From Parafrankia irregularis (GTDB lineage: Bacteria; Actinomycetota; Actinomycetes; Frankiales; Frankiaceae), in NCBI RefSeq assembly GCF_001536285.1, contig NZ_FAOZ01000004.1, positions 248,001-312,000 on the forward strand: a stretch of 64,000 bases of DNA, in the 5' to 3' direction. The notes under the pieces were generated by a model. It made no database searches and was not told the DNA's origin. It worked only from the letters and a program-made list of their open reading frames with translations. A program made the position numbers and the translations under genes. Shown one piece after another: positions 34,178-48,160 of this stretch (its first letter is position 1; every line of letters begins with the position of its first letter).

Positions 34178-36592
34178 TCAGCCGCGCCCGGGCCACGTCC
34201 AGTCGCGGATCTCGGGCAGGTCCTCGAAGTGCTCGGTGACGTAGGCGTGGTGCCGTTCGATCGACAGCTCGCAGTGGTCGACGAGCCGGTCGGTGCCCGG
34301 GTGGGTGGTGCGGGCGAACTCCACGGCGAGGCGGGCCAGGTGGAACCGGCTGACGCCGTTGCGCACGACCATGTCGAACGGCGTCGTGGTGGTGCCTTCC
34401 TCCATGAAGCCGCGCACGTGGAAACGGCTCGGGTTTGGCCGGCCGTGCAGCAGCTGGTGGACGGCCCGGCTGTATCCGTGGAACCCGACCACGACATCCG
34501 TCTCATTCGTGAACAGGGCACGGAACATCGGATTCGAGAACCCGTGCGGGTGCAGGTCGGACCGCAGCAGGGCCATCAGGTCGACCACGTTCACCACCCG
34601 TACCGACAGGCTGGGAACGAACTGGTGGAGCAGGTCGGCCGCGGCGAGGATCTCCATGGTGGGGACGTCGCCGATGCCGACGAGCACGATGTCCGGGTCC
34701 CGCCCGTGCCGGGCCTCGGTACCGGCCCACTCCCAGACCGAGGCGCCGCGGGCGCAGTGCTCGGCCGCCTCGTCCGCGGTCAGGTACTGCAGGTGCGGCT
34801 GCTTGTCGGCGACCATCAGGTTGACGTGGTTGCGGCTGCGCAGGCAGTGGTCCGCGACGGAGAGCAGCGTGTTGGAGTCCACCGGCAGCCAGATCCGCGC
34901 GACACCCGGGGACAGCGGCACGACCGTGTCGATGAGCCCCGGGCCCTGGTGCGAGAAGCCGTTGTGGTCGTTGCGCCAGCAGGTGCTGGTCAGCAGCACG
35001 TTCAGGCTCGGCACGGGCACGCGCCAGTCGAGCTTCGACGCCTCCTGCAGCCATTTCGTGTGCTGGACGACCATGGAGGCCGAGACCATCGCGAACGCCT
35101 CGTAGGTGGCGAACAGGCCGTGGCGCCCGGTGAGGGTGTAGCCCTCCAGCCAGCCTTCGCACAGATGCTCGGAGAGCACCTCCATCACCCGGCCGTCGGG
35201 GGAGACCCGGTCGTCGGTCGGCTCGATCGGGGCGACCAGGCAGCGGTCGGAGACGTCGAGGACCGCGCCGAGACGGTTGCTGCTGAGCTCGTCCGGGCTG
35301 AAGACCCGGAATGTGGTCGGATTGTCCTGGTAGACGTCGCGCAGCAGCTCACCCAGCGGCCGGGTGGTCTCGTGCAGGAGCGTGCCGCGGCGCGCCGGGT
35401 CGATCTGGAGGGCGTAGGAACGCCACTCGCGCAGGCGCAGCGGCTCGGTCCGGCGGCCGCCGTTGGCGTAGCTCGCCGCGCCCATGCGCCTGTCGCCGTC
35501 CGGCGCCAGCGCGGCCAGGTCCGCGATGAGCCGCCCGCCGGCGTCGAAGAGGCGCTCCGGCTCGTAGGAACGCAGCCAGGCCTCGAGCTGCGCCAGATGT
35601 GCCGGGTTGTCCCGGACTCCGGCGAGGGGCACCTGATGGGCCCGGAAGGTCCCCTCGACCTGAACGCCGTCGACCTCGCGCGGACCCGTCCAGCCCTTGG
35701 GTGTACGCAGGATGATCATCGGCCAGTGGGGCGCGTCGGTCACCGTCGCCCCCGGCCGCCGTGCCGCGACCTGGAACTCGCGGATCTGCCCGTAGGCGGT
35801 GCGCAGCGCCGCCGCGAAGTCGCGGTGGACCTGCTCGACGTCCGACCCCTCGACCCAGTGGACGTCGTAGCCGTGCCCGGTGAACAGGTTCGTCACCTGC
35901 TCGCGGCTGTGCCGGGCCAGCACCGTCGGATTGGCGATCTTGTACTGGTTGAGGTTCAGGATCGGCAGGACTGCGCCGTCGCGGCGCGGGTTCAGGAAGC
36001 TGATGCCCTTCCAGCTGCCCTCCAGCGGGCCGGTCTCGGCCTCGCCGTCGCCCACCACGGCCGCGACCAGCAGATCCGGGTTGTCGAACGCCGCGCCGAA
36101 GGCGTGGACCAGGGCGTAGCCGAGCTCGCCGCCCTCATGGATCGACCCCGGGGTCGGGACGCTGACATGACTCGGGATGCCGCCAGGTGTCGAGAACTGC
36201 CGCACGAGTCTGGTCAGCCCGGCGACGTCCCGCGAGACCGCCGGGTAGATCTCGGAGTAGGTGCCCTCCAGGTAGGTGTTGGCGACCAGCGCCGGGCCGC
36301 CGTGCCCCGGGCCGGTGACGTAGAGGACGTCCTGGCCGGTCAGCCGCACCAGGCGGTTCAGATGCGCGTAGATGAGGTTCAGCGCGGGTGAGGTGCCCCA
36401 GTGGCCCAGCAGCCGCGGCTTGATGTCCTCACGCCGCAGGGGCTGGCGCAGCAGGGGGTTCGCGAGCAGGTAGATCTGGGCGGCCGTCAGATAGTTCGCG
36501 GCCTTCCAGTAGTCCACGAGGCGCGTGAGCGCCTCGTGGTCCAGCTCCGGGACGGTGGTGGTGTTATCGGTCGACTGTGCCGTCGCAGTCAT
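34178..36592 (-). CDS. xfp: phosphoketolase (xylulose-5-P / fructose-6-P)
   Basis: 804-aa thiamine-diphosphate enzyme that splits xylulose-5-phosphate or fructose-6-phosphate to acetyl phosphate and an aldose phosphate. The GHWGTSP motif near residue 63, GPGHGGPALVAN near 95, the ThDP pocket GDGEAETGPLEGSW near 181 and DGVQVEGTFRAHQVP near 313 are all present at normal spacing and length. No acetate kinase or phosphotransacetylase gene lies nearby. It ends convergent with the TetR gene, 22 bases away. Confidence 0.96.
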   Translation of the reverse strand: MTATAQSTDNTTTVPELDHEALTRLVDYWKAANYLTAAQIYLLANPLLRQPLRREDIKPRLLGHWGTSPALNLIYAHLNRLVRLTGQDVLYVTGPGHGGPALVANTYLEGTYSEIYPAVSRDVAGLTRLVRQFSTPGGIPSHVSVPTPGSIHEGGELGYALVHAFGAAFDNPDLLVAAVVGDGEAETGPLEGSWKGISFLNPRRDGAVLPILNLNQYKIANPTVLARHSREQVTNLFTGHGYDVHWVEGSDVEQVHRDFAAALRTAYGQIREFQVAARRPGATVTDAPHWPMIILRTPKGWTGPREVDGVQVEGTFRAHQVPLAGVRDNPAHLAQLEAWLRSYEPERLFDAGGRLIADLAALAPDGDRRMGAASYANGGRRTEPLRLREWRSYALQIDPARRGTLLHETTRPLGELLRDVYQDNPTTFRVFSPDELSSNRLGAVLDVSDRCLVAPIEPTDDRVSPDGRVMEVLSEHLCEGWLEGYTLTGRHGLFATYEAFAMVSASMVVQHTKWLQEASKLDWRVPVPSLNVLLTSTCWRNDHNGFSHQGPGLIDTVVPLSPGVARIWLPVDSNTLLSVADHCLRSRNHVNLMVADKQPHLQYLTADEAAEHCARGASVWEWAGTEARHGRDPDIVLVGIGDVPTMEILAAADLLHQFVPSLSVRVVNVVDLMALLRSDLHPHGFSNPMFRALFTNETDVVVGFHGYSRAVHQLLHGRPNPSRFHVRGFMEEGTTTTPFDMVVRNGVSRFHLARLAVEFARTTHPGTDRLVDHCELSIERHHAYVTEHFEDLPEIRDWTWPGRG

Positions 36593-36635
36593 GCGCCGTG
36601 GATATCACGTCCACTGTCAGCTCACGGTGAGGCCG

Positions 36636-37394
36636 TCAGCTCACGGTGAGGCCGTTGTCGACGGTGTAGACGGCGCCGGTGATCGAACGCGCCTCGTCGG
36701 AGGCGAGGAACGCGAACAGGGCGGCGATCTCCTCGGGCTCGGCCAGCCCGCGCATGCCGGCCATCCGCCCGACGAGGTCGGGGTCCATGTCGCTCGGGAA
36801 GGTGCCCGAGGTGGCGATGTTGGTGTTCGTGCCCGCGGGCGCGATCGCGTTGACCCGCAGCCTCGTCTTGAGGAACTCGACGGCGAGCGACCGGGTGAGC
36901 GCGATCAGCCCGCCCTTGCTCATGCTGTAGGCCGCCGAGTAGGGAACGCCCTGCAGGCCGGAGTTCGACGCGATGTTGATGATGGTGCCGTCGGTTTCCA
37001 GCAGGTGGGGGATCGCGGCCTGGGCGAGGAAGAAGCAGCCGTCGAGGTTCACGCCCATGACCCGCCGGTACTGCTCGACCGGCATCTTCGTCGTGTGCTC
37101 GGCCAGGTAGATCCCCGCGACGTTGCCGAGCACGTCGAGCCGCCCGAACTCGGCGACGGCCGCGGCGACCGCCTCGGCGCAGGCGGCCGGGTCGCTGACG
37201 TCGGCCTGGCGCACCGACAACCGTCCGGTCGTCAGCGCCAACGCCTGCGTCTTCGTCTCGGCGAGCCGGCCCTCGTCGATGTCGATGCCGAGCACCGACG
37301 CTCCCTGCCCAGCGAGCCGTAACGCGATCGCACGGCCCATGCCGGACCCTGCGCCGGTGATGAGCGCCGCCTTGCCCTCAAACGAAGCAGTCAT
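36636..37394 (-). CDS. short-chain dehydrogenase/reductase
   Basis: 252-aa SDR with TGAGSGMG near residue 14, NVAG in place of NNAG, a Ser in SNSGLQG and catalytic YSMSK. The second strand ends LGIDID, suggesting NAD(H). The start is ATG 37394 with GGAGGA seven bases upstream. It follows a cupin gene by about 25 bases on the same strand and lies before phosphoketolase, so the cupin and SDR probably form a small operon. The substrate is not evident. Confidence 0.9.
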   Translation of the reverse strand: MTASFEGKAALITGAGSGMGRAIALRLAGQGASVLGIDIDEGRLAETKTQALALTTGRLSVRQADVSDPAACAEAVAAAVAEFGRLDVLGNVAGIYLAEHTTKMPVEQYRRVMGVNLDGCFFLAQAAIPHLLETDGTIINIASNSGLQGVPYSAAYSMSKGGLIALTRSLAVEFLKTRLRVNAIAPAGTNTNIATSGTFPSDMDPDLVGRMAGMRGLAEPEEIAALFAFLASDEARSITGAVYTVDNGLTVS

Positions 37395-37420
37395 GATTGG
37401 TGAATCCTCCGAACTCTGTG

Positions 37421-37819
37421 TCAGGATTTCCGCTGGTCGGTGAAGACGCCGGGCTGCCCGGAATGGATCTCGATCCACTCGGCGCCCTCGTCGCCGGCCC
37501 GCCAGGCGTAAAGAAGATCGGGCGTGAAGAATCCCATTCCCGCACCGACCCTGCGCCGGCCGAATATCAGCTCGCCGCGCAGGACGTAGTTCAGCTGGTG
37601 CGTGCCGTGCCGGTGCGGCTTGACCTTCTCGCCGGGAGCGGCTGTCTCATGGAAAACAGACAGCTCCGGGGACTGCAGGATCGTCCTGGTGACAAGGTCG
37701 CGTCCGAAGAGGTCGAGGTACTCCTGTGCCTCTTCGGAATCACCGAAGAGCTCGGCGTTCGTGTGCCCCGGAAGCTGGTTGACATCGAAGAAGAACTGCC
37801 GGGCGGGCTCATCGGCCAT
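37421..37819 (-). CDS. cupin-domain protein
   Basis: 132-aa protein with a single cupin barrel. Metal-ligand residues are visible in KPHRHGTHQLNYVLRGE (His cluster), followed by the second motif near FTPDLLYAW, where the usual His appears to be missing. The start is ATG 37819 with AAGGAG upstream; the longer open frame to 37870 lacks that support. It could be a small dioxygenase, isomerase or binding protein partnered with the SDR downstream. Confidence 0.82.
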   Translation of the reverse strand: MADEPARQFFFDVNQLPGHTNAELFGDSEEAQEYLDLFGRDLVTRTILQSPELSVFHETAAPGEKVKPHRHGTHQLNYVLRGELIFGRRRVGAGMGFFTPDLLYAWRAGDEGAEWIEIHSGQPGVFTDQRKS

Positions 37820-38210
37820 CAGTCGGCTCCTTCCACGCGCCGTCGGCGCTCTGAACAATTCACGTCTCAACCGGCCGTCCGGTCAACTCGTGACTTTCGG
37901 AGCGCAAGCGGCTATGCGGCGGCCGGATGGTCCTGGCGGAACACGAAGAGGCATTCGCCGAGGTTGGGCCGTCCGCCGGCGTGGCGGTGCCGGGCGGGCG
38001 GAGCCCGCCCGACGGCGACCCGTCCGGTTCAGCGGAACCGCGCCGGGCTCGGCTACCGCCGGGCCGGGCGCTGACAATCCCGCCCGCGCGGTCTGCGCCG
38101 TGGTCCGTGGTCGTTCGGGAGCCCGGCGGACGATACTGTCCGAAGCCCCCATTTCGACATGCCGCGGCCGGAACTCCCATGCAGGCCGGCGGTTCGGACG
38201 GAGATGTGCC
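37820..38210. other. 391-bp region without a convincing gene
   Basis: It separates the divergent cupin and TM2 genes and must hold both promoters. A near copy of the SacII-centred palindrome, CGGTTCAGCGGAACCG with one changed base, lies at about 38025-38040. Small open frames here have poor composition and no ribosome site. Confidence 0.5.
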
Positions 38211-38708
38211 ATGACCACGCCAGGACAGCCGCCGTATCCGGACCCGGGCAGGCAGGGACACGGTTTCGGTGAGACGGGGCCACAGGAGCCGGGCTTCGGC
38301 CCGCCACCCGGCGGATTCCCACCCGGCGCGCCACCCGGTGGATTTCCACCCGGCCCACCGCCTGGGTACGGTCCGCCGCCGGGCTATGGGCCGCCGCCGG
38401 CCTACGGGCCCCCGCCGGGCTACGGTCCCCCACCGGGCTACGGAGGCGGGTGGTTCGACCCCACAGCCCCCTACGGACGCCACCCGGTGACTGGTGAGCC
38501 CCTCTCGGACAAGCAGAAGCTCGTCGCCGGGCTGCTCCAGTTCTTCCTCGGTGGGGTCGGTGCGGGGCGGTGGTACATGGGAAGCAACGGCATCGCGATC
38601 GCCCAGCTGCTCACCTGCGGCGGGCTCGGAATCTGGGCACTGATCGACGGCATCATCATCCTCACCAGCGATGTCCGGGACCAGTACGGCCGCCCGCTGC
38701 GTGACTGA
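38211..38708 (+). CDS. TM2-domain membrane protein with Pro/Gly-rich N-terminus
   Basis: 165-aa protein. Residues 1 to about 85 are Pro-Gly-Tyr rich repeats (PPGGFPPG, GYGPPPGYG). A TM2 domain follows with two helices (LVAGLLQFFLGGVGAGRWYMG and IAQLLTCGGLGIWALIDGIIIL) joined by the typical short loop. It ends overlapping the next gene by eight bases. TM2 proteins have no settled bacterial role. The pairing with a DUF2752 gene is common in actinobacteria. Confidence 0.88.
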   Translation: MTTPGQPPYPDPGRQGHGFGETGPQEPGFGPPPGGFPPGAPPGGFPPGPPPGYGPPPGYGPPPAYGPPPGYGPPPGYGGGWFDPTAPYGRHPVTGEPLSDKQKLVAGLLQFFLGGVGAGRWYMGSNGIAIAQLLTCGGLGIWALIDGIIILTSDVRDQYGRPLRD

Positions 38709-39132
38709 CGCGGGCACCACCGACGGGCCCGCGGGGCGCCGCCGGCGGCGTCTCCTTCTCACCGGCGCGGCCGGGTGCCTGGTGGCGGGCGCGGTCTACC
38801 TGGCAGCCGTCGACCCGCACGACCCGGCCGCCGCGATGCCGACGTGTCCGACGAAGGCGCTGACCGGCCTGGACTGCCCGGCCTGCGGCGGCCTCCGGCT
38901 CGCCCACGATCTGCTCCACGGCATGCCGGCGGCCGCCGCGCACGACAACCTGTTCCTGCTGGTGTGCGCACCGCTGCTGGCCGCGCTCGTGGTCCGGCAG
39001 GCCCGTGCCTACGAGCGCGGCGTGCGCGCGCCCCTCCCGCGCCCGCTTGCGCACGGCATCGCGGGTGCCGCGCTGGCGTGGACGGTCGTCCGCAACCTGC
39101 CGGGCTGGCCGCTCACGCCGACCACCGGCTGA
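38701..39132 (+). CDS. DUF2752 membrane protein
   Basis: 143-aa protein with about three hydrophobic helices and the DUF2752 motif CPTKALTGLDCPACGGLR near residues 53-70, a CPxCG element followed by HDLLHG. The start is GTG inside the end of the TM2 gene. It is probably co-expressed with TM2. No function is established for the family. Confidence 0.87.
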   Translation: MTDAGTTDGPAGRRRRRLLLTGAAGCLVAGAVYLAAVDPHDPAAAMPTCPTKALTGLDCPACGGLRLAHDLLHGMPAAAAHDNLFLLVCAPLLAALVVRQARAYERGVRAPLPRPLAHGIAGAALAWTVVRNLPGWPLTPTTG

Positions 39133-39696
39133 CAGCCGGGCGGTTCCGCGCAAGCGCCCCACGTTCGGCCAGCGCCGGCTGCCGGCCAGGGGAGCACTCG
39201 GCCGGCTGCACCGAGCTCGGTGCCACCGAGTTCAGCGGGATGGTGCGGAACATCGGCGGCTCCTGCTCCGGCGTCAGGGCGGTCGGGCCGTGGATCCAGT
39301 CGGTGAAGCTGTAGTCGTAGGTGTCGCGGGACCGCAGGATGACGTTGCGCTGCAGCCGCGGGACGCCGTCGACGTGCCACAGCGCACTGTCGGCGAGGGT
39401 GGGCCGGTCACGACGGTCTGGCCCGGCCCACCCTCGCCGGCTCCCGGCAGCTCCCAGCGCCGCGAGGCATCGGACGTCGCCAGGACGAGCACGCCGGCAG
39501 CAGTGACGGACGAGGCGGCGGCGAACGAGGCGGCGACGGACGAGCTTGCGGCGGGTGGCGGTTCCGCGGAACCGCCGCGTCGTTCGACCACGTCGTCGCA
39601 CAGCGCGGCGAGGAAGTAGGCGGACAGCTCGCCGAACGAGGCGCTGAGCCGCAGGTCCACGGCGTGCACACACACCTCACGGGACCGCAGCCACGG
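39113..39696 (-). pseudogene. truncated, frameshifted remnant of a mycothiol-dependent isomerase-type gene
   Basis: Minus-strand coding remnant. The first part, PWLRSREVCVHAVDLRLSASFG and on to TVVTGP, resembles the DinB-like/MDMPI C-terminal half (the REV..HAVDL pattern). One base added in a C run near 39430 joins it to TLADSALWHVDGVPRLQ and a well-conserved-looking tail (DTYDYSFTDWIHGPTALTPE) with almost pure G/C third positions. No N-terminal half exists: the reading frame runs straight into hairpin element copy 4. A SacII-centred palindrome lies inside. The family of the tail is not recognised. Confidence 0.6.
39557..39576. repeat. SacII-centred 20-bp palindrome, copy 2 (in the remnant gene)
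   Basis: Identical 20 bases to the lutC copy: GGCGGTTCCGCGGAACCGCC. Here it adds a GGSAEPP-like peptide to the remnant gene, as in lutC. Confidence 0.9.
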
Positions 39697-39709
39697 CAGC
39701 TGCTTCCGA

Positions 39710-39761
39710 GCAAGAGATGGTGATTTCGGCTGCGAGGACAACCGAAATCCTCCCATCTTGC
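39710..39761 (+). repeat. dispersed hairpin element, copy 4
   Basis: Arms GCAAGAGATGGTGATTTCGG and CCGAAATCCTCCCATCTTGC pair imperfectly, best at the inner end. The flanks GCAGCTGCTTCCGAG and GCGGATTGTCAAACGACT agree with copies 2 and 3. It lies at the broken 5' end of the isomerase remnant. Confidence 0.85.
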
Positions 39762-39893
39762 GGATTGTCAAACGACTTCGCGCCCCGGTTGTACCTATTG
39801 GCGTGAATTGCTGGTGCCGTGTGGTGATGTGGGATCCCGGCGGGCCCGGTCAAGATCGGTAACGCTGTCCGATCTTTCTGTGTGAAAGTTTAC

Positions 39894-39920
39894 TTGACAT
39901 CCTGTAAAGCTCTGTACGAG
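39894..39920 (+). promoter_or_regulatory. tentative promoter of the FMN reductase gene
   Basis: A consensus TTGACA at 39894-39899 is followed by TACGAG at 39915-39920, but the spacer is only 15 bases and the -10 is poor. The surrounding 39762-40025 region is otherwise without a gene and relatively A/T-rich. Confidence 0.3.
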
Positions 39921-40025
39921 TGTGGGGTTCGCCTCGCGAGGTGAGGGCTGTCGGCGGGAATGGGCGACCTTCCCGATTCGGTTGAGCCTTCAACGGAACA
40001 GCCTCGCCCAGAGTGGAGATCCCCC

Positions 40026-40607
40026 ATGTCCAGGCCCCTCCTGCAGATCATCATCGCGAGCACCCGCCCGACCCGAGCCGGTGCGGCGGTGGGGGCGTGG
40101 ATCGCCGACGCCGCACGGGCGCAGGGTGGCTTCGACGTCGAGGTCGTCGACCTCGTCGACGTCGATCTGCCGATCTTCAACGAGCCGAACCACCCGATGA
40201 CCGGGAACTACGTACACGAGCACACGAAGCGGTGGAGCGCCACGATCTCCCGCGCGCAGGCGTTCGTGATCGTGACCCCGGAGTACAACCACAGCTTCCC
40301 CGGCTCGCTGAAGAACGCGCTGGACTACCTCAGCCGCGAATGGCGCTACAAGGCCGTCGGCCTGGTCTCCTACGGTGGGGTTTCGGCGGGCCTGCGCGCG
40401 GTCACGCAGCTCAAGCCGGTCCTCGCCGCGCTGCGCATGGTGCCGGTGACCGACGCCGTCTCGGTGCCGTTCCTCGGCCAGCGCCTGGACGAGTCCGGCG
40501 CCTTCCGCAGCGACGAGCTGATCGACGCATCCGCCAAGAGGATGCTCGACGAGCTGGTGACGGTGGGCACCGCGCTCATCCCGTTGCAGTCGCCCGCGGG
40601 CGACTGA
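40026..40607 (+). CDS. NADPH-dependent FMN reductase family protein
   Basis: 193-aa flavodoxin-fold protein. The phosphate-binding loop IIASTRPTRAG near residues 8-18 and the TPEYNHSFPGSLKNALDYL signature near 80-98 identify the FMN_red family (NADPH:FMN or quinone reductase). ATG 40026 has GTGGAG upstream; the longer open frame from 39960 is less likely. It is a single gene with its own leader. It may detoxify quinones or supply reduced flavin, but no partner is adjacent. Confidence 0.92.
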   Translation: MSRPLLQIIIASTRPTRAGAAVGAWIADAARAQGGFDVEVVDLVDVDLPIFNEPNHPMTGNYVHEHTKRWSATISRAQAFVIVTPEYNHSFPGSLKNALDYLSREWRYKAVGLVSYGGVSAGLRAVTQLKPVLAALRMVPVTDAVSVPFLGQRLDESGAFRSDELIDASAKRMLDELVTVGTALIPLQSPAGD

Positions 40608-40648
40608 CCGCCCGGCTGTACGCCGTCTGACGGCAGCACGTCATCCGA

Positions 40649-40674
40649 GCCGGCGGTTCCGCGGAACCGCCGGC
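40649..40674. repeat. SacII-centred palindrome, copy 3 (26 bp)
   Basis: The core GGCGGTTCCGCGGAACCGCC is extended to a perfect 26-bp palindrome by GCC/GGC. It lies in the 219-bp gap after the FMN reductase gene and may act as a terminator there. Confidence 0.9.
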
Positions 40675-40826
40675 GCCTGCCCGCGCCTGTTTCTGCGCTG
40701 CCACTGCCCCTGCGCCAGACAAATGTCGGGACGGCGACCGGCCCGTAGTGATTTGTGGCCAGCTGTATAGGCTGATCCAACTATGGCGGGGCAGCGGGAA
40801 ACACTGCACGACATCGGATACTCACG

Positions 40827-43226
40827 GTGATCTTCGATCGCGGGTGGGTGGAACGAGCGCTGCCCGCCTATCGGGTGGGCGAGCAGCTGGGCTCGGGGTC
40901 GTTCGGTGCGGTGCTGGCCGGTGAACACCGGTGGCTGGACCGTCGAGTCGCGATCAAAGTGATGGCCGGCGACGGGACGGCGGGCGCCGCGAGCGGGTTC
41001 GCCGAGGAGGCGAAGGCCCTCGAGAAGCTGAAACACCCGCATGTGCTTCATGTGCACGACTATGTCGAGGCCGAGGGCCTCTGTCTGGTGGTGATGGAGC
41101 TGATGGCCGGCGGCACGCTGGCTGATCGGCTGCTCGGTATGACCCCGGAACAGGCGTGCGGGGTCGGGCTGGCTGTCGCGGCGGCGCTGGAGCATGCGCA
41201 CAGCCACAAGATGCTGCACCGCGACATCAAGCCCGAGAACATTCTTTTCGGCGCCGACGGCACGCCCGTCGTCGGCGATTTCGGCCTGGTGAAGATGTTC
41301 GAGGGCTCCGCGGCGACCGCGAGCGGATCGGGCACTCCGCTGTACATGGCGCCGGAGCAGATCCAGGGCGGCCGGCTCGGGCCGGGCGTCGACCTGTACG
41401 CGCTCGGAGTGGTGCTCTACCAGTTGCTGGTCGGGACGCCGCCGTTCGGCCGCGACCGGCAGTCGGTGCCAGCGGTGATGTTCCAGCACCTGACGCAGCC
41501 TCCGCCCCCGATGACCGGTGTGGCGGCCCCGTTGGCCGACGTCGTGCTGCGTGCCCTGGCGAAGTCACCCGCCGACCGCCACCGGGACGCACCAGCCTTC
41601 GCCCTCGACCTCGCGCGGGCCGCGACCAAGGTGTTCGGGCCAGGCTGGGCCGCCCGGACGGGGCTGTCGTTACACCTGTTGGACACCGTCCGGCGGTTCG
41701 CCCTCCATCCCCGCGATCCCTTCGATTCCGGCGATTCCAGGCCCGGCACGGTCACGGACGGGGGTGCCGGCGGCCGAGGCGGGGCGGAGCGGCCCAGCTG
41801 GGACTTCTTCGTTTCGTACGCCAGGGCCGATCGTGCCTGGGCGGAATGGATAGCCGGGCAGCTGGTCGCCGCCGGCCATCGGGTGCTGCTGCAGGCCTGG
41901 GACGAAACGCCGGTCCCGTACTGGAGCACCGGCATGTTCGAGGGCACCGTGTACGCCGCCCACACGTTGGCGCTCCTCTCCCCGGCCTATCTGGAAACGG
42001 TGCTCGGGCGGCCTGAATGGAACGCCGCCTCGGGTTCCGACGGGGCTCGGTTCGCCCGCACTCTGATACCGGTACGCATCGCGGACTGCCCCTGGCCCGA
42101 CCTGCCTGCCGGCGGTCTGAACGTCGATCTCACCGGGACGTCCGCCGACGAGACGCGGCGCATCCTGCTCGACCAGCTCGACGCGGCTCGCAGCGGGTCC
42201 GCGAGCGGTCCGGCCCGCACCGAGATCGACGTCGCTCCCACGCCCGTCGGCGCACCGGCGATCAACTCGCTGATACCGCCCCAGCGGCATCCCGCGGGCG
42301 GCGTCCCGAGCGTTCCACCGGTGACCGTGACCACGCCGGTCACCGAGCCCACGCCTGCGTCTGAGCCTGCGTCTGAGCCCGAGGTCGCGCCCGCGTCTGA
42401 GCCCGAGGTCGCGCATGCGCCCGCGTCTGAGCCCGCGCCCGACGCCGCGGCCGACCTGGACACGCCGGGCCCGGTGTCCCGGCGCGAGCGGCAGCGTGCG
42501 CGCAGGCGCAGGTCGCGGCGCCGAACGGCACGGCTGGCCACGATCTGCGGTGTCGTCCTGGCCGTTCTGGCGGTGTCGGTCGGGGCGGTCATGTCCGGGA
42601 ACCTGTTCGGTGGCACTCGCGGGGACTCGAGCGATGCGACGGGCTCCCAGGGCTCGGGCGGCACGGTGAAACTGACCCCGGTGCCTTCGCCGCCCACCAC
42701 CGTCGTCACGCCCACCATGAGCCCCACGCCAACCGCGGTGACCTCGGCGGTCGGCTCGACGGCTCCGGTCGCTCCGACGACCTCGCCCGCCAGCCGGCCG
42801 ACGGACCTGGTCACCACCACCAGGCCTCCTACCGTGACGAGGACGACGGCTCCTCCCGTCAACTCGGCCCAGGCCGCCCCGGCGGGCCCAGGCAGCGGCG
42901 ACAGGTACCAGGAGGGCTCACAGGTGAGTGTCTCCGGCTGCACGGGCTGGCTGAATTTCGAGGGCGTGCTGTATGGAAAGCTCTCCGCCGGCGCCGGGTC
43001 ATGTGTCGCCGACGTCATCGTGAACGGTGAGGCGAACACCAGCTCCTCCACCAAGCGGCTCGAGGCGTCGAACTACGCCACCGCGAACTCCAAGCCGGGC
43101 AGTTTTCTCGTAATCGGCTACTACAGCTACTCGGAGCGGATCTGCGTCTGGAACGCGGCGGATCCGGGTGGGAAACGGTGCTCGCCCACGTTCGTGGACA
43201 CCCAGGGCAAGGTCTCGCGGCGGTGA
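40827..43226 (+). CDS. Ser/Thr protein kinase-TIR fusion with membrane helix and outer domain
   Basis: 799-aa four-part protein. Residues 13-270 are an active-looking Hanks kinase: glycine loop GSGSFG at 22-27, K44, HRD at 131-133, DFG near 151, APEQ. Residues about 325-450 are a TIR_2 domain (WDFFVSYARADRAW) with a candidate catalytic Glu near 397 in GRPEWNAA. A Pro/Glu/Ala/Ser repeat linker, a transmembrane helix near 569-592, a Thr/Pro stalk and a C-terminal outer domain (about 695-799) with two or more cysteines follow. The start is GTG. Kinase and TIR face the cytoplasm, so an outside signal could gate phosphorylation and NAD(+) cleavage or TIR assembly. A role in defence or stress is inference. 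Confidence 0.9.
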   Translation: MIFDRGWVERALPAYRVGEQLGSGSFGAVLAGEHRWLDRRVAIKVMAGDGTAGAASGFAEEAKALEKLKHPHVLHVHDYVEAEGLCLVVMELMAGGTLADRLLGMTPEQACGVGLAVAAALEHAHSHKMLHRDIKPENILFGADGTPVVGDFGLVKMFEGSAATASGSGTPLYMAPEQIQGGRLGPGVDLYALGVVLYQLLVGTPPFGRDRQSVPAVMFQHLTQPPPPMTGVAAPLADVVLRALAKSPADRHRDAPAFALDLARAATKVFGPGWAARTGLSLHLLDTVRRFALHPRDPFDSGDSRPGTVTDGGAGGRGGAERPSWDFFVSYARADRAWAEWIAGQLVAAGHRVLLQAWDETPVPYWSTGMFEGTVYAAHTLALLSPAYLETVLGRPEWNAASGSDGARFARTLIPVRIADCPWPDLPAGGLNVDLTGTSADETRRILLDQLDAARSGSASGPARTEIDVAPTPVGAPAINSLIPPQRHPAGGVPSVPPVTVTTPVTEPTPASEPASEPEVAPASEPEVAHAPASEPAPDAAADLDTPGPVSRRERQRARRRRSRRRTARLATICGVVLAVLAVSVGAVMSGNLFGGTRGDSSDATGSQGSGGTVKLTPVPSPPTTVVTPTMSPTPTAVTSAVGSTAPVAPTTSPASRPTDLVTTTRPPTVTRTTAPPVNSAQAAPAGPGSGDRYQEGSQVSVSGCTGWLNFEGVLYGKLSAGAGSCVADVIVNGEANTSSSTKRLEASNYATANSKPGSFLVIGYYSYSERICVWNAADPGGKRCSPTFVDTQGKVSRR

Positions 43227-43255
43227 CCGTCGTGCCTCGCACCATGGCATACGCA

Positions 43256-43291
43256 GGCGGGCCGGCCTGAGGGAGCTCAGGCCGGCCCGCC
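43256..43291. terminator. bidirectional hairpin terminator
   Basis: Two perfect 16-bp arms (GGCGGGCCGGCCTGAG and its complement) around a 4-base GGAG loop, between the convergent kinase-TIR and PhoX-like genes. There is no U-tract, as is common in high-GC actinobacteria. Confidence 0.8.
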
Positions 43292-43334
43292 GTCAGCAGG
43301 TGCTGTCAGTGCTCAGAGAGCGCCGATCGGATGA

Positions 43335-44765
43335 TCAGCGGTGGTCGCCGCGGGGGTCGTGGTAGTCGCGGTCGTCGCAGCCGTCCCAGGGCCCGGTGAT
43401 GGCGAGCACGTAGCCGGGGCTCTGGATGTTGGCGAAGAGGATCTTCTTGTCGGCGCTGAAGTTCGGGCCGGTGAACTCGCTCTCGTTGAGCTCGTTGCGC
43501 GCCAGCGCGTAGGCCGTGCCCTTCTTGGTGACACCGATCAGGTGGCTGACGCCCTCGCCGTCCTCGGCCAGGATGAGGCCGCCGTAAGGCGACACGGTGA
43601 TGTTGTCCGGGCCGTCGAAGTCGACGTCCTGGGTCGGGTCCAGGTTCAGGCCGAAGATCACCTTGAGGGTGATGGTCTCGTTGTTCGGGTTGTAGAACCA
43701 GACCTGGCCGTCGTGCTCCTTGGGGCTGCCGTCGCTCACCCGGGCGTAGCTGCAGACGAAGTACACGCCGCCGTCACCCCACCAGGTGCCCTCCAGCTTG
43801 CGGCTGTTGGTGACCTGGTCGGTGGTGAACTGCTTGCGGATGGAGACCGTGGCCGCGCTGCGGTCGGGGACGTCCACCCAGCTGACCTTGTACCTGGTGC
43901 CGACCGTGGTCGCCTCGGAGAGGTCGACGATGTGCTGCGACCCGTTGCTGGCGCTCAGCGCCTGCAGGGAGCCGGCGGTGTCGCCGCCCGCGCTCAGCGC
44001 GAGCGCACGCAGCGCGCCCTTGCCGGCGCGGAACCTCTTCGGTGGCGTCCAGCGGTAGAACAGGCCGTGCGGGCTGCTGGCGTCCTCGGTGAGGAAGATC
44101 TCGGCGGTCTTCGGGTCGACGGAGACGGCCTCGTGGGCGAAGCGGCCGAGGAACTTCAGCGGCACCGGGTTCTTGTTCGCGGCCTGGTCCACCGGGTCGA
44201 CCTCGAAGACGTGCCCGTGGTCGTACTTGTAGGTGGCGTTGGCCTTCTGCTCGGTCTCCTCGCAGGTCAGCCAGGTGCCCCACGGGGTGTAGCCGCCGGC
44301 GCAGTTGGTGAGGGTCCCGGCCAGGCTGACGTACTCGCGGACCCGGTTGCCCAACCGGTCGACCACGATGTTGGTGGTCCCGCCGGGGGCTCCCGGGTCG
44401 TAGGTGTAGTCCGCGATACGCGGCACCGGGTTGGCAGCGGCGCCGCTGAGCTCGTGGTTGTTGACCAGCACCGAGCCGCCGTTGCGGGTGGGGAAGGAGG
44501 CGGTGCCGTCCGGGGCGCCCGGGGTCGGCTCGCCCGACTCGAGCGTCGTCACGCCGGTCTGGGCGATGATCTTGTAGGAGAAGCCCTTGGGCAGCGCGAG
44601 CAGGCCCGCCGGGTCGGCGATGACGGCGCCGTAGCCGGTCGCGGAGCGGGACGTGGCCTGCGCGGCGGTGCCGGCGAGAACGTCCATGCTGCCGGCGGCG
44701 ACCAGGCCGAGGCCGCCCACCGCGCCGGTGCGCATCAGGTTACGGCGGGAAATGGAAGAAGTCAC
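43335..44765 (-). CDS. PhoX/DUF839-family secreted protein, Tat substrate
   Basis: 476-aa protein with a twin-arginine signal (SRRNLMRTG, then a hydrophobic GGLGLVAAG segment) and an AQA-like cleavage site. The mature part matches the DUF839/PhoX beta-propeller family: PKGFSYKIIAQTG, VLVNNHELSG, GGYTPWGTWLTCEET, GRFAHEAVSVDP and a late PDNITVSPYGGLILAEDGE. PhoX enzymes are calcium/iron phosphatases, but many DUF839 members are uncharacterised. The start is GTG 44765 because GGAGG lies seven bases before it; earlier in-frame ATGs would put residues in front of the Tat motif. Confidence 0.9.
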   Translation of the reverse strand: MTSSISRRNLMRTGAVGGLGLVAAGSMDVLAGTAAQATSRSATGYGAVIADPAGLLALPKGFSYKIIAQTGVTTLESGEPTPGAPDGTASFPTRNGGSVLVNNHELSGAAANPVPRIADYTYDPGAPGGTTNIVVDRLGNRVREYVSLAGTLTNCAGGYTPWGTWLTCEETEQKANATYKYDHGHVFEVDPVDQAANKNPVPLKFLGRFAHEAVSVDPKTAEIFLTEDASSPHGLFYRWTPPKRFRAGKGALRALALSAGGDTAGSLQALSASNGSQHIVDLSEATTVGTRYKVSWVDVPDRSAATVSIRKQFTTDQVTNSRKLEGTWWGDGGVYFVCSYARVSDGSPKEHDGQVWFYNPNNETITLKVIFGLNLDPTQDVDFDGPDNITVSPYGGLILAEDGEGVSHLIGVTKKGTAYALARNELNESEFTGPNFSADKKILFANIQSPGYVLAITGPWDGCDDRDYHDPRGDHR

Positions 44766-45032
44766 CGGCGTGCCTCCAAAGATCATTATTAACTGGGACG
44801 CCATGGACATTGTCGGGTCGACCTGACACCTCGTTTGTCGGTATGTGGCCGGACGGCCAACAGCTGGGAAACGATTGCTGCGTGCGTGCAGGTTGGGCCC
44901 CCGGGCACCGGCTGGGCCGCGTCTGTTGGGCGCAGAAATTCCCGGGCCGGGGAAAGCCGTGCACGTCGGGTTCCCGCAATGAATACCGAGCGTTGCCGAT
45001 TCCGGTGTCGAATCCACAGAAAAGGCTTCCGC

Positions 45033-45051
45033 TTATGTTTGGTAAACCTAA
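45033..45051. promoter_or_regulatory. weak DtxR/IdeR-like box
   Basis: TTATGTTTGGTAAACCTAA agrees with the IdeR consensus at 15 of 19 positions. It lies just past the TetR stop and about 270 bases before the PhoX-like start. It is weaker than the site at 30918. Confidence 0.35.
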
Positions 45052-45053
45052 GT

Positions 45054-45635
45054 TTAGTTTGAGGCTCGCTGTGCGAGTGGCAGGAAGATCGTATCGACGA
45101 TCTCGGTGAGGACGTCCTCGGGCACCGGCGCGAGAGTCATCAGGGCCTCGTGGCGCAGGAGGTCGAACGGAAGCGACTTCACCCGGTCGGGCAGGGGAGT
45201 GGGGCCGATCTCCCCCCGCTGGGCGGCGCGGGCGAACAGGGCGTCGAGCCCGTCCTTGCGGTCCCCTTTCAGGACGCGGCGCAGGTCCGCGGGGCTGGTG
45301 CCGGTCTCCCGGTAGTAGTCGGCCAGGTGGACGCTCACCAGGGTGACGAGCTGGATCCGGGTGTCGTTGAACTGCCGCATGAGCGTGAGGATGTCGCCGC
45401 GCAGGCTGCCGGTGTCGGGGATGGTGATCTCGTCCCGTTCGAGGGCGCGGATGATCGTGGCGCGGACGAGTTCGTGCCGGTCGGACCAGCGGCGATAGAG
45501 GACGGGGCGGCTGGTTCCGGCGCGCTGGACGACGGCATCCATCGTGAAGTTGGCATAGCCGTGCTCGGTCAGCTCCGCCCAGGCCGCGTCGAGCAGTGCT
45601 GCCTCCAGCGCGGCCCCGCGGCGACGCTCCGTCAT
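45054..45635 (-). CDS. TetR-family regulator of the adjacent efflux gene
   Basis: 193-aa TetR regulator with helix-turn-helix LDAAWAELTEHG and MDAVVQRAGTSRPVLYRRWSDR near residues 15-60, and a TetR_C-type ligand domain. It is divergent from an MFS efflux gene with an imperfect palindrome between them. This is the usual arrangement for drug-responsive repression. The ligand is unknown. Confidence 0.9.
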   Translation of the reverse strand: MTERRRGAALEAALLDAAWAELTEHGYANFTMDAVVQRAGTSRPVLYRRWSDRHELVRATIIRALERDEITIPDTGSLRGDILTLMRQFNDTRIQLVTLVSVHLADYYRETGTSPADLRRVLKGDRKDGLDALFARAAQRGEIGPTPLPDRVKSLPFDLLRHEALMTLAPVPEDVLTEIVDTIFLPLAQRASN

Positions 45636-45670
45636 CTTCCCTTCGGCCCCTGTTCTACCCGTTCCGCCTT

Positions 45671-45688
45671 AGACACGCTTGCGTATCT
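45671..45688. promoter_or_regulatory. candidate TetR operator
   Basis: AGACACGCTTGCGTATCT is an 18-bp palindrome with one mismatched pair, centred between the divergent TetR and MFS genes. A TATCTTA heptamer at its right edge recurs 47 bases downstream. Confidence 0.6.
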
Positions 45689-45750
45689 TATGGAGGGCGC
45701 CTACGATCGCCTCCGGCAAGAAACGACGATGTATCTTAGGTGGTCGTTCA

Positions 45751-47241
45751 TTGAGTACCTCCGACGGGACCGCAACCGCTTCGCAGCAGGGCCCAGTCGC
45801 CTCCGACCGTATCGACCCGGCGGTGTGGCGCATGGCGATCACCGTCATCGTGGGTGCGCTGGCCGTCATCCTCGACACCACGATCGTCAGCGTCGCCATC
45901 AATGATCTCACCCGCGAGCTGGACACCTCGCTCTCCACCATCCAGTGGGTGAGCACCGGCTATCTGCTGGCCATGTTCGTCACCATCCCCGTCGCCGGAT
46001 GGGCACAGTCGGTACTTGGCGGCAAACGGCTGTGGATCGCCGCCCTCGGCATCTTCCTGCTCGGTTCGGTCCTGTGTGCGGCCGCGTGGGATGTGCACAG
46101 CCTCATCGTGTTCCGCGTCGTCCAGGGCATCGGTGGCGGGATCATCATGCCACTCATGATCACTTTGATCATGCAGGCGGCGCGGGGCGGCAACATCGGC
46201 AAGGTCATGGCGACGATCTCGCTGCCGGCCGCCCTCGGGCCCATCCTCGGGCCGGTCCTGGGCGGCGTCATCCTGCATGTCGGCGACTGGCGCTGGATGT
46301 TCTTCGTCAACATCCCCTTCTGCGTCGTCGGTGCCTGGCTCGCCGCCCGCAACCTGCCCGACGACCGGCCGCGGGGCGGCACCCGAGCCCGCCTCGACGT
46401 CCTCGGCCTGCTGCTGATCTCGCCGGGCGTCGCCGCCGTCATCTTCGGTCTCTCCCGGGTCGAGGGCAGCGCGGGTTTCGCGAGTGTGGAGGTCCTGCTG
46501 CCGCTGCTCGTCGGCCTCGCCCTGATCGCGGCATTCGTGGGCTGGGCCCTGGCGCGCTCCACGGCCGCGCTGGTCGACCTGCGCCTGCTCCGCCACCGCC
46601 CGCTGGCGTCATCCGCCGCCGTCGGCTTCGTCCTCGGTGGGGCCCTCTACGGCTCCATGCTGCTGCTGCCGCTGTTCTGGCAGCAGGCTCGCGGTGAGGA
46701 CGCCCTCGGGGCAGGGTTGCTGCTGATCCCGCAGGGAGTGGGCACCCTGTTCTCCCGGAACCTCGCGGGCAGGTACACCGACCGGTACGGGCCCCGCTGG
46801 GTCGCGCTGACCGGATTCGCCCTCGCCTGCGTGGCCACCCTGCCGTTCGCGTTCGTCACGGCCGGCACGGGCGACGTGCCGCTGCTGGCCGCGCTCTTCG
46901 TGCGCGGGCTCGGCCTCGGCGCCGCCACCATCCCACTGGCCGGTGCCGCCTACATCGGCCTCGGCCATGCGGAGATCCCGCACGCCAGCGTCATCACCCG
47001 AGTCGGCCAGCAGATCGGCGGCTCCCTGGGTACCGCGGTTCTTGCCGTGGTCCTCCAGCACACGGCCGGGGGAGCTCACACCCCCGAGGCCGTCGCCGAC
47101 GCCTTCGGTGAGGCCTTCTGGTGGTCGATCGCCTTCACCGCCGTCGCCGTCCCGCTCTGCCTGCTGCTGCCCGGCCGCCCCACCGCGCCGTTCGTTCCCG
47201 AGTCGGCCGACGTCGACGCGGAAGTCGCCGCACCGGCGTAG
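45751..47241 (+). CDS. MFS drug-efflux transporter, DHA2 (EmrB/QacA) type
   Basis: Integral membrane proton antiporter of 496 aa with about 14 helices. Motif D1 LDTTIVSVAINDL is near residues 40-52, the QWVSTGYLLA helix follows, and the motif C-like PAALGPILGPVLGG is near 170. TTG 45751 with AGGTGG upstream gives a normal cytoplasmic N-terminus. A TTG at 45679 would lie in the operator region. It exports toxic compounds of unknown identity, probably under the divergent TetR repressor. Confidence 0.9.
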   Translation: MSTSDGTATASQQGPVASDRIDPAVWRMAITVIVGALAVILDTTIVSVAINDLTRELDTSLSTIQWVSTGYLLAMFVTIPVAGWAQSVLGGKRLWIAALGIFLLGSVLCAAAWDVHSLIVFRVVQGIGGGIIMPLMITLIMQAARGGNIGKVMATISLPAALGPILGPVLGGVILHVGDWRWMFFVNIPFCVVGAWLAARNLPDDRPRGGTRARLDVLGLLLISPGVAAVIFGLSRVEGSAGFASVEVLLPLLVGLALIAAFVGWALARSTAALVDLRLLRHRPLASSAAVGFVLGGALYGSMLLLPLFWQQARGEDALGAGLLLIPQGVGTLFSRNLAGRYTDRYGPRWVALTGFALACVATLPFAFVTAGTGDVPLLAALFVRGLGLGAATIPLAGAAYIGLGHAEIPHASVITRVGQQIGGSLGTAVLAVVLQHTAGGAHTPEAVADAFGEAFWWSIAFTAVAVPLCLLLPGRPTAPFVPESADVDAEVAAPA

Positions 47242-47250
47242 AGGAAGCCG

Positions 47251-47287
47251 CTGTGCCGGCACAGGGAAAGTCCCTGCGCCGGCACAG
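47251..47287. terminator. hairpin terminator between convergent genes
   Basis: 17-bp arms (CTGTGCCGGCACAGGGA / TCCCTGCGCCGGCACAG) with one mismatch and an AAG loop, located between the MFS gene and the convergent methyltransferase gene. Confidence 0.8.
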
Positions 47288-47326
47288 GGGGAAGCCGTTG
47301 CGTCGGCGTAGGGCAGACGAGCGCTT

Positions 47327-48160
47327 TCAGGGCTTGCGGGCCACGCCTGCGAACAGCCAGTCGGTGCGCGGGCTGTCGTCGTCTCCCGGGTTCCACTGCC
47401 ACGGCCGCACAATTCCGGGTTCGACCAGGTCGAGGCCGGAGAAGAAACCCTCAATGGCGGCACGCGGCCGGAAGATTATTGGCGATGTCGCGTTCTCGTA
47501 GGCTGCCTCCGTCCGGGCCACGCCCTCGGCCGGAGGCCCGTCCGTCGTCAGGTGCGAAAGCGTCAGGAAGGATCCGGCGGGAACCGCGCTCATGAACTCG
47601 GCGAGCAGCTCACGGGGCCGCTCGCCGTCCTGGATGAAGTGGAACAGGGCCACCGAGAGAACGGCGACGGGCCGGGAGAAATCGATGAGGGCGCCCGCGT
47701 CCGGATGGTCGAGGATCGACCGGGGCTCGCGTGCGTCCGCGGTGATAATTGTTGTCGTCTTGTTCGTCGCGAGCAGCGCGCGACCGTGTGCCAGGACGAT
47801 CGGGTCGTTGTCCACATAGACGACCCGGGCATCCGGGTTCACCTGCTGGGCGATCTCGTGCACGTTCCCCTGCGTCGGCAGGCCGGTCCCGATGTCGAGG
47901 AACTGGTCTATACCGGCGTTCGCGAGCCAGCGGGTCGCCCGCTGCAGGAAACGGCGGTTCTCCCAGACGATGTCGAACGTCATCGTCTTGCCCAGGGCGG
48001 TGTCGACCGCGGCGGCGGCCGTCCGGTCGACCTCGAAGTTGTCCTTGCCCCCGAGGAAGAAGTCGTACATGCGGGCCGGGGTCGGCCGGTCCGTCCGAAG
48101 ATCGGCGCCGGGGTCACCGCCGTCGCTCTCGGACACCGCTGATTTGAAGTTCCAGCCCAT
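47327..48160 (-). CDS. SAM-dependent methyltransferase, PF04672 (DUF574) family
   Basis: 277-aa class I methyltransferase. The family hallmark TPARMYDFFLGGKDNFEVDR is near residue 28, the SAM-binding LDIGTGLPTQGNVHE near 88, and VVYVDNDPIVLAHGRALL near 110. Actinobacteria carry many paralogues, mostly of unknown substrate and often near regulators. It stands alone between the MFS terminator and mftR. Confidence 0.92.
   Translation of the reverse strand: MGWNFKSAVSESDGGDPGADLRTDRPTPARMYDFFLGGKDNFEVDRTAAAAVDTALGKTMTFDIVWENRRFLQRATRWLANAGIDQFLDIGTGLPTQGNVHEIAQQVNPDARVVYVDNDPIVLAHGRALLATNKTTTIITADAREPRSILDHPDAGALIDFSRPVAVLSVALFHFIQDGERPRELLAEFMSAVPAGSFLTLSHLTTDGPPAEGVARTEAAYENATSPIIFRPRAAIEGFFSGLDLVEPGIVRPWQWNPGDDDSPRTDWLFAGVARKP

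What the first reader, a model, noticed from the sequence alone, without database searches (positions are those of the whole stretch)
40827..43226. Kinase-TIR-transmembrane-outer-domain fusion
A complete Hanks kinase and a TIR domain with a candidate catalytic Glu lie on the cytoplasmic side of one membrane helix. An uncharacterised Cys-containing domain of about 100 residues lies outside. TIR domains in bacteria often cleave NAD(+) or make signalling nucleotides in defence. A membrane receptor that links an outer signal, phosphorylation and TIR activity in one chain is unusual and could be a stand-alone defence or stress sensor.
Basis: partly seen in the sequence, partly recalled or inferred. 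Interest (0 to 1): 0.8.

Follow-up and report, generated by a model that had tools for sequence, protein, structure and literature searches.

The report
Frankia receptor kinase carrying TIR domain
A soil bacterium of the Frankia group encodes a membrane receptor that joins an outer sensor, a protein kinase and an immune-type TIR domain in one chain; the TIR is an optional add-on that most related receptors lack, so it looks more like a plug-in module than a proven defence enzyme.

Summary
Window 40827-43226 encodes 799 aa: complete Hanks kinase (Pfam 8e-47), TIR_2 (2e-23; Glu397 in the canonical column), one membrane helix, and a 111-aa outer domain with four invariant Cys, predicted as an Ig-like beta sandwich (pLDDT 84.8). 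The genome (Parafrankia-type) has 32 TIR_2 and 78 kinase matches. The protein belongs to a large Frankiaceae receptor-kinase expansion with interchangeable ends. Its TIR is patchy: present in 3 of 11 Frankiaceae genomes with this outer domain (absent in 7, one unreadable), and missing from a syntenic same-genus relative. Two more kinase+TIR chains exist in the genome: a paralogue whose Glu is Gly, and a TIR-kinase-TM-TAXI binding protein. None of 8 kinase-fused Frankia TIRs (three gene lineages) keeps both Glu and BB-loop Gly; 18 of 26 other TIR domains of the genome do. The window's TIR is constrained (dN/dS 0.26) but lacks that Gly and the WxxxE aromatic. Ten neighbouring genes match no defence model. 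Best reading: a receptor kinase in which the TIR is an assembly/docking module; NADase activity is possible but unsupported. New variant of a known kind.

The parts
40827..43226 (+). whole gene, GTG start, 799 aa: kinase - TIR - linker - TM - stalk - outer domain
40869..41579 (+). Hanks-type Ser/Thr kinase domain, residues 15-251; K44, HRD 131-133, DFG 151-153, APE 175-177 present
   Evidence: Pfam PF00069 8.1e-47; motifs
41799..42191 (+). TIR domain, residues 325-455
   Evidence: Pfam PF13676 327-444, 2e-23; dN/dS 0.26
41901..41924 (+). BB-loop region DETPVPYW (359-366), in which the Gly found in 25 of 26 other TIR domains of this genome is Val
42015..42017 (+). codon of Glu397, canonical TIR Glu position; position -4 (WxxxE aromatic) is Leu393
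42192..42533 (+). Pro/Ala/Glu-rich then Arg-rich cytoplasmic linker, weakly constrained
42534..42590 (+). single membrane helix, about residues 570-588, N-in/C-out by charge
   Evidence: hydropathy and charge only
42591..42890 (+). Ser/Thr/Pro-rich extracytoplasmic stalk
42891..43223 (+). outer domain, residues 689-799; four invariant Cys (705, 726, 773, 785); predicted Ig-like beta sandwich

Best explanation
It is a receptor-type Hanks kinase of an expanded Frankiaceae family with interchangeable ends. The four-Cys Ig-like outer domain senses something at the cell surface (inferred) and passes this through one helix by clustering (inferred); the intact kinase is the constant output (its conservation is shown, its activity is not). 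The TIR inserted in the juxtamembrane linker most likely acts as an assembly or docking module: it brings receptor copies together or binds some of the cell's roughly 30 other TIR domains, so that kinase and TIR partners meet at the membrane (inferred). A residual NAD-hydrolysing activity through Glu397 is possible, not established.
For: The kinase is well constrained in every fusion pair compared (dN/dS 0.13 and 0.31 for the window's gene against EUN1f and P. colletiae, 0.14 A', 0.16 B). The same kinase family (33 of 35 Frankiaceae genomes at E<=1e-50) carries other C-terminal parts: WD40-like and beta-lactamase-like (read by eye), TAXI/NMT1_3 binding protein (Pfam), so a constant kinase with swapped ends is usual. 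The TIR is optional: of 11 genomes with outer domain A, 3 have it, 7 do not, 1 is cut off by its contig end; P. colletiae (TIR) and EI5c (no TIR) are sisters, 100/99, and a clade of the TIR-bearing orthologues is rejected, p-AU 0.0024. EI5c keeps the order FMN reductase - kinase - TetR - MFS. The canonical signature is eroded: 0 of 8 kinase-fused TIRs keep both Glu and BB-loop Gly, against 18 of 26 other TIR domains of the genome. The best solved sequence matches of the TIR profile are TLR6, TLR1 and TLR2 TIRs. In the genus the receptor TIR occurs in the three genomes with most TIR_2 matches (32, 30, 32) and not in the three others (21, 17, 11).
Against: Glu397 is kept in all three orthologous fusions and the TIR is constrained (0.26 against EUN1f, 0.48 against P. 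colletiae), as expected also of an enzyme. Enzymatic TIRs are also among the profile's PDB matches, further down (Cat1 1.8e-9, AbTIR 1.9e-8). No TIR partner, phosphorylation site or ligand is shown. In the A' and B fusions TIR dN/dS (0.59, 0.56) is no lower than the A' linker (0.56), closer to decay than to a docking role. The 8 fused TIRs are only three gene lineages, so 0 of 8 is not 8 independent events. The TIR-count trend rests on six genomes.
Confidence: 0.45

Rival explanations
1. Receptor-triggered TIR effector: ligand binding or phosphorylation clusters the TIRs, Glu397 becomes active and NAD+ is cleaved, killing or arresting the cell (defence or conflict).
For: Glu397 in the canonical column and kept in 3 of 3 orthologous fusions; TIR constrained; genome rich in TIR domains (32 matches); TIRs are described as NAD+-cleaving effectors in such systems (passages of PMC8195603).
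Against: BB-loop Gly to Val, WxxxE aromatic to Leu; AbTir needs that Trp for NADase activity, though TcpC does not (passages of PMC11374754); paralogue lost the Glu; syntenic relative lacks the TIR; no PADLOC match in 10 neighbours. A survey notes that the frequency of the Glu does not necessarily follow reported activity (passages of PMC7075850).
Confidence: 0.28
2. The TIR regulates the kinase inside the chain: it sits next to the kinase and, by self-association or by being phosphorylated, sets the kinase threshold.
For: TIR lies between kinase and membrane helix in the A and A' fusions at the same juxtamembrane place; receptors without it persist, so it may modulate rather than carry output.
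Against: In type B the TIR lies on the other side of the kinase. The kinase+TIR model is too poor to show a contact (pLDDT 59.9, pTM 0.54).
Confidence: 0.15
3. The TIR is a decaying passenger, inserted by recombination with one of the genome's many TIR genes and being lost.
For: Patchy presence, absence in EI5c; Glu lost in A', loop Gly lost in A and B; relaxed TIR in A' and B.
Against: The window's own TIR has dN/dS 0.26, under its linker segments (0.51 and 1.07), no frame damage, and is found in three genomes with 55 percent identity between window and P. colletiae TIRs.
Confidence: 0.1

Closest known systems
Actinobacterial receptor Ser/Thr kinases (PknB-type, one helix, outer sensor; general picture recalled)
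   Same: N-terminal cytoplasmic kinase, linker, one helix, extracytoplasmic C-terminal domain
   Different: PknB_PASTA model scores 204 bits against a cut-off of 450 and matches only the kinase; TIR in the linker; four-Cys Ig-like outer domain
Kinase-TIR paralogue A' in the same genome (G000 C1; G020 C311)
   Same: kinase-TIR-TM-outer with a homologous four-Cys domain (hhalign 94.6 percent, E 6.5e-8); its TIR groups with the window's (99/95)
   Different: Glu replaced by Gly in both copies; TIR dN/dS 0.59
TIR-kinase-TM-TAXI fusions (type B; G000 C34, G020 C304, G004 C362)
   Same: same kinase family, TIR and outer sensor in one chain
   Different: TIR first; sensor is an NMT1_3/TAXI-type binding protein; separate TIR clade
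Actinobacterial TIRs often found with TPR ('group 6' of PMC7075850; passages and one short section seen)
   Same: the closest TIR relatives are mostly in Frankiaceae (32 of 35 Frankiaceae against 13 of 358 other genomes at E<=1e-20, 11 candidates scored per genome)
   Different: in the window's genome 29 of 32 TIR_2 matches are not kinase-fused, and 25 of 26 of those examined keep the BB-loop Gly; membership of group 6 by its residue pattern was not tested
Toll-like receptor / MyD88 / IRAK chain (analogy, recalled)
   Same: outer domain, one helix, TIR and a kinase in one pathway; TLR TIRs are the best PDB sequence matches
   Different: here one polypeptide, bacterial, kinase at the N terminus; no evidence of common descent of the architecture
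Kinases and TIRs in NTP-dependent conflict systems (PMC7159879: section 14 and passages seen)
   Same: both domain types are components of such systems, kinases in those of actinobacteria
   Different: there the systems centre on NTPases and most kinases are described as disrupted; here one chain with an intact kinase and no such match in the 10 neighbours tested

Membership tests
TIR domain (Pfam TIR_2) | score above curated cut-off | tested here: met
   83.6 against 28 bits
Hanks-type protein kinase | curated score and catalytic Lys, HRD, DFG | tested here: met
   160.3 against 31.7 bits; motifs
Enzymatic TIR (NADase/cyclase) | catalytic Glu in the alpha-C region | tested here: met
   E397
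Enzymatic TIR (NADase/cyclase) | WxxxE aromatic at -4 (needed in AbTir, not in TcpC, so not universal) | tested here: not met
   Leu393; passage of PMC11374754
Enzymatic TIR (NADase/cyclase) | NAD-binding pocket geometry | tested here: inconclusive
   TIR part of the model has block pLDDT 27-64
Enzymatic TIR (NADase/cyclase) | NAD+ turnover | not testable with these tools
   needs assay
PknB/PASTA receptor kinase | NCBIfam equivalog cut-off | tested here: not met
   204.4 against 450 bits
MADS defence kinase MAD6 | NCBIfam equivalog cut-off | tested here: not met
   119.8 against 460 bits
PD-T4-6 defence kinase | match beyond a generic kinase domain | tested here: inconclusive
   210.6 bits over residues 14-267, positions 10-274 of a 292-position model that is little more than a kinase; no cut-off given
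Thoeris and other listed TIR defence systems | partner defence gene beside the TIR gene | tested here: not met
   0 PADLOC matches at E<=0.001 in the 10 neighbouring genes tested, 34178-48160
Ig-like beta sandwich (outer domain) | clear structural match to the fold | tested here: inconclusive
   all-beta model pLDDT 84.8; no Foldseek match at E<=0.001; best VIA Z 7.1, rmsd 3.3 over 89 residues, Big_2-CBM56, below the Z 8 guide

The most novel reading that the evidence does not exclude
A bacterial one-chain counterpart of a Toll pathway: an Ig-like surface sensor whose TIR recruits the strain's many other TIR proteins to the membrane so that the attached kinase phosphorylates and switches them, making this receptor a hub of the Frankia TIR repertoire.
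Probability: 0.15. Interest if true: 0.85.

Novelty: new variant of a known kind. Interest (0 to 1): 0.5.

Why it matters
Receptor kinases and TIR proteins are usually treated as separate systems in bacteria (my general knowledge). Here one gene family shows TIR domains at two different places on receptor kinases, with a syntenic relative that lacks the TIR as a natural control. This makes it testable whether a bacterial TIR can work as a non-enzymatic assembly module, as in animal Toll pathways, and what the large TIR repertoire of Frankia listens to.

Tried and rejected
Chance or wrong frame: rejected (E-values, open frame, homologues, dN/dS). Member of a defence island: no PADLOC match in the 10 neighbours tested; they are phosphoketolase, SDR, cupin-like, TM2, DUF2752, FMN reductase, PhoX, TetR, MFS and methyltransferase genes; 7 of the 10 were found in EUN1f in the same order, whose contig ends before the other three. 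Phage or plasmid gene: the 10 phage hits listed of 53 match only the kinase; plasmid TIR hits are all below 60 percent identity (15 records); the viral contig scan with the TIR found no relative. Solved structure by sequence: none for the single TIR at E<=0.1, 57 sequences with a profile. Kinase+TIR structure: poor, not used for the pocket. Wider spread of the outer domain: 13 of 393 class genomes, all Frankiaceae, with only the 11 best candidates scored per genome; a weak plasmid hit in Streptantibioticus (26 percent, E 0.3) lies in a kinase frame of the same layout with the four Cys, so the domain may reach further than the profile. VIA-align listed no row above Z 7.1; absence of a family there proves nothing. 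Literature: nine answered searches showed no report of a bacterial receptor kinase carrying a TIR. Two listings were cut (15 of 135, 15 of 26); only listings and the passages or sections named were seen; subscription papers are mostly not held. Two passages bear on priority: PMC7075850 speaks of plant TIR groups as adapters and protein kinases in one place and as paired with an NTPase in another, and PMC10907252 lists both TIR and Pkinase among domains of Thiohalocapsa DGR loci, in one chain or not I did not see.

Rows dropped before counts: one search left out duplicate TIR rows and one fragment; one search left out the same, and TIR domains of other genomes were printed apart; one search used 16 of 17 planned rows (L165 did not match the script's start pattern); the kinase tree (quick method) holds some fragments and copies of the same gene under two locus ids.

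Full report
WHAT IS THERE. The frame 40827-43226 (+) is open for 799 aa. Pfam finds a complete protein kinase (15-251, 8.1e-47) and a TIR_2 domain (327-444, 2e-23, 83.6 bits against a cut-off of 28), and nothing above a cut-off in the outer part. Nine relatives have a start codon at the same residue: ATG in 4, GTG in 4, TTG in 1.

HOST. The nearest records are Parafrankia sp. EUN1f (90 percent identity) and P. colletiae (49 percent). The window lies in a 9.54 Mb genome of 82 contigs, whose name is not given. That genome has 32 TIR_2 matches and 78 Pkinase matches.

A RECEPTOR FAMILY WITH INTERCHANGEABLE ENDS. The kinase belongs to a subfamily found at E<=1e-50 in 33 of 35 Frankiaceae genomes, 300 matches in all (table, summed), 21 in the window's genome. 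I fetched part of these: 119 kinase rows entered the tree, some of them fragments or copies. The kinase is followed by different ends: the four-Cys domain, WD40-like or beta-lactamase-like parts (read by eye), or a TAXI/NMT1_3 binding protein (Pfam).

THE OUTER DOMAIN. A profile of seven relatives hits 11 of 35 Frankiaceae genomes, once each, and the same 11 of 393 genomes of the class. A second version, outer B, is homologous (hhalign probability 94.6, E 6.5e-8). In 13 aligned sequences the four Cys and two Trp are invariant. With outer B included the count is 13 of 393, all Frankiaceae. AlphaFold2 gives an all-beta sandwich (pLDDT 84.8, pTM 0.79; the five models range from 84.8 down to 62.5). 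No Foldseek match reaches 0.001; the best VIA Z is 7.1, rmsd 3.3 over 89 residues, to a Big_2-CBM56 structure, with cytokine-receptor domains among the rows near 6. I call it Ig-like by arrangement; the ligand is unknown.

THE TIR IS AN OPTIONAL INSERT. Of the 11 genomes with outer domain A, three carry the TIR: the window's, EUN1f and P. colletiae; seven do not; in one (G006) the frame is cut off by the contig end before the TIR would be reached. Frankia sp. EI5c, same genus by handle G021, has FMN reductase - kinase - TetR - MFS in the window's order, without TIR and without PhoX between kinase and TetR. On a tree of kinase plus outer domain (16 rows) P. colletiae and EI5c are sisters (100/99), and a clade of the TIR-bearing orthologues is rejected (p-AU 0.0024). 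On the kinase tree of 119 rows the TIR label needs 4 changes, at least 3 forced by well supported branches.

OTHER KINASE-TIR CHAINS. Intersecting TIR and kinase frames of the window's genome gives three fusions: the window's gene; a paralogue A' (C1, kinase-TIR-TM-outer B); and type B (C34, TIR-kinase-TM-TAXI). EUN1f (G020) has counterparts of all three, and genome G004 has a type B. In 40 TIR sequences those of A and A' group together (99/95), though their kinases lie in separate clades with TIR-less members; type B TIRs form another clade (99/98; bootstrap not settled). A and A' fusions were seen only in this genus, so moving of the TIR between paralogous receptor genes is a plausible cause; ancestral gain with repeated loss is not excluded. 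A TIR profile of the five A/A' fusions finds those five at 228-235 bits and then drops to 180 in 393 genomes, so no further member of that TIR clade was seen; only the 11 best candidates per genome were scored. Outside Frankiaceae one Ktedonobacteraceae protein among the loci held has kinase-TPR-TIR. Because not all family kinases were fetched, the number of fusions is a lower bound.

STATE OF THE TIR. The Glu is E in all three orthologous fusions, Gly in both A' copies and E in the three type B copies. At the BB-loop Gly position the fused TIRs read V, V, V (A), G, G (A'), E, D, S (B). Both features are kept in 0 of 8 fused TIRs and in 18 of 26 other TIR domains of the genome (26 of its 29 non-fused matches entered the alignment, at over 40 bits); the Gly alone in 25 of 26. 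The 8 represent three gene lineages, so no probability is given. Position -4 from the Glu is Leu in the window and EUN1f, Phe in P. colletiae, and aromatic in 17 of 26 others. In AbTir that Trp is needed for NADase activity and for the cyclic product, in TcpC it is not needed (passages of PMC11374754). A survey found the Glu in over 70 percent of TIRs and noted that its frequency does not necessarily follow reported activity (passages of PMC7075850). The best PDB sequence matches of the TIR profile are TLR6, TLR1 and TLR2 (3.1e-15 to 6.7e-14); a TIR-STING fusion follows at 5.9e-12, bacterial TIR proteins from 6.8e-11, Cat1 at 1.8e-9 and AbTIR at 1.9e-8.

SELECTION. Window against EUN1f: dN/dS 0.13 kinase, 0.26 TIR, 0.28 outer, 0.46 TM, 0.51-1.07 linkers and stalk; against P. 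colletiae 0.31 kinase, 0.48 TIR, 0.39 outer. A' pair: 0.14 kinase, 0.59 TIR, 0.56 linker, 0.12 outer. B pair: 0.16 kinase, 0.56 TIR, 0.17 binding protein. Counts are small (6-8 synonymous changes per TIR in the close pairs). The window's TIR is the best kept of the three; the TIR is nevertheless less constrained than the kinase in every pair.

CONTEXT. The ten neighbours tested are metabolic, transport, regulatory or uncharacterised genes and match no PADLOC model. In P. colletiae a second TIR protein (two hydrophobic C-terminal stretches, by eye), keeping Glu, Gly and an aromatic, starts about 1.9 kb downstream. Within the genus the three genomes with the receptor TIR have 32, 30 and 32 TIR_2 matches, the three without 21, 17 and 11. 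This fits a docking-partner model but is six genomes only.

MECHANISM. Shown: domain order, intact motifs, conservation, optional TIR. Inferred: sensing by the outer domain, clustering, kinase activation, TIR docking. I prefer docking/assembly (0.45) to an active NADase effector (0.28), intramolecular kinase control (0.15) and decay (0.10).

NOVELTY. Nine answered searches showed no bacterial receptor kinase carrying a TIR (two of the listings were cut). Kinases and TIRs are known as components of conflict systems (PMC7159879, section 14 and passages). I rate this a new variant of a known kind.

Noticed in passing
L218:1333-4179 (G000 C34), L214:719-3658, L155:165-2849: TIR-kinase-TM-TAXI/NMT1_3 binding-protein fusions: a receptor kinase with a transporter-type solute-binding sensor and an N-terminal TIR.
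   Followed up: partly
L032:9117-14160 (Ktedonobacteraceae MAG): Three neighbouring TIR frames on one strand: TIR alone, kinase-TPR-TIR, and TIR-TPR; the kinase-TPR-TIR keeps Glu, BB-loop Gly and Trp, unlike the Frankia fusions.
   Followed up: partly
L002:5898-6827 (P. colletiae): TIR protein with two hydrophobic C-terminal stretches (by eye) downstream of the kinase-TIR gene, with Glu, BB-loop Gly and aromatic kept; a transposase-like frame lies upstream at 696-1547 (by eye).
   Followed up: partly
L007:10001-11590 (Frankia sp. AgKG'84/4): Same kinase family fused to a beta-lactamase-like domain (by eye).
   Followed up: no
L079:1057-3333 (Streptantibioticus pSCAT): Kinase frame with a distant four-Cys outer domain (26 percent identity, E 0.3), no feature listed there in the record; the sensor may reach beyond Frankiaceae.
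   Followed up: partly
window 43335-45017: PhoX-type phosphatase gene between the receptor gene and the TetR/MFS pair in the window, and next to the receptor gene in EUN1f; not between receptor and TetR in EI5c.
   Followed up: no
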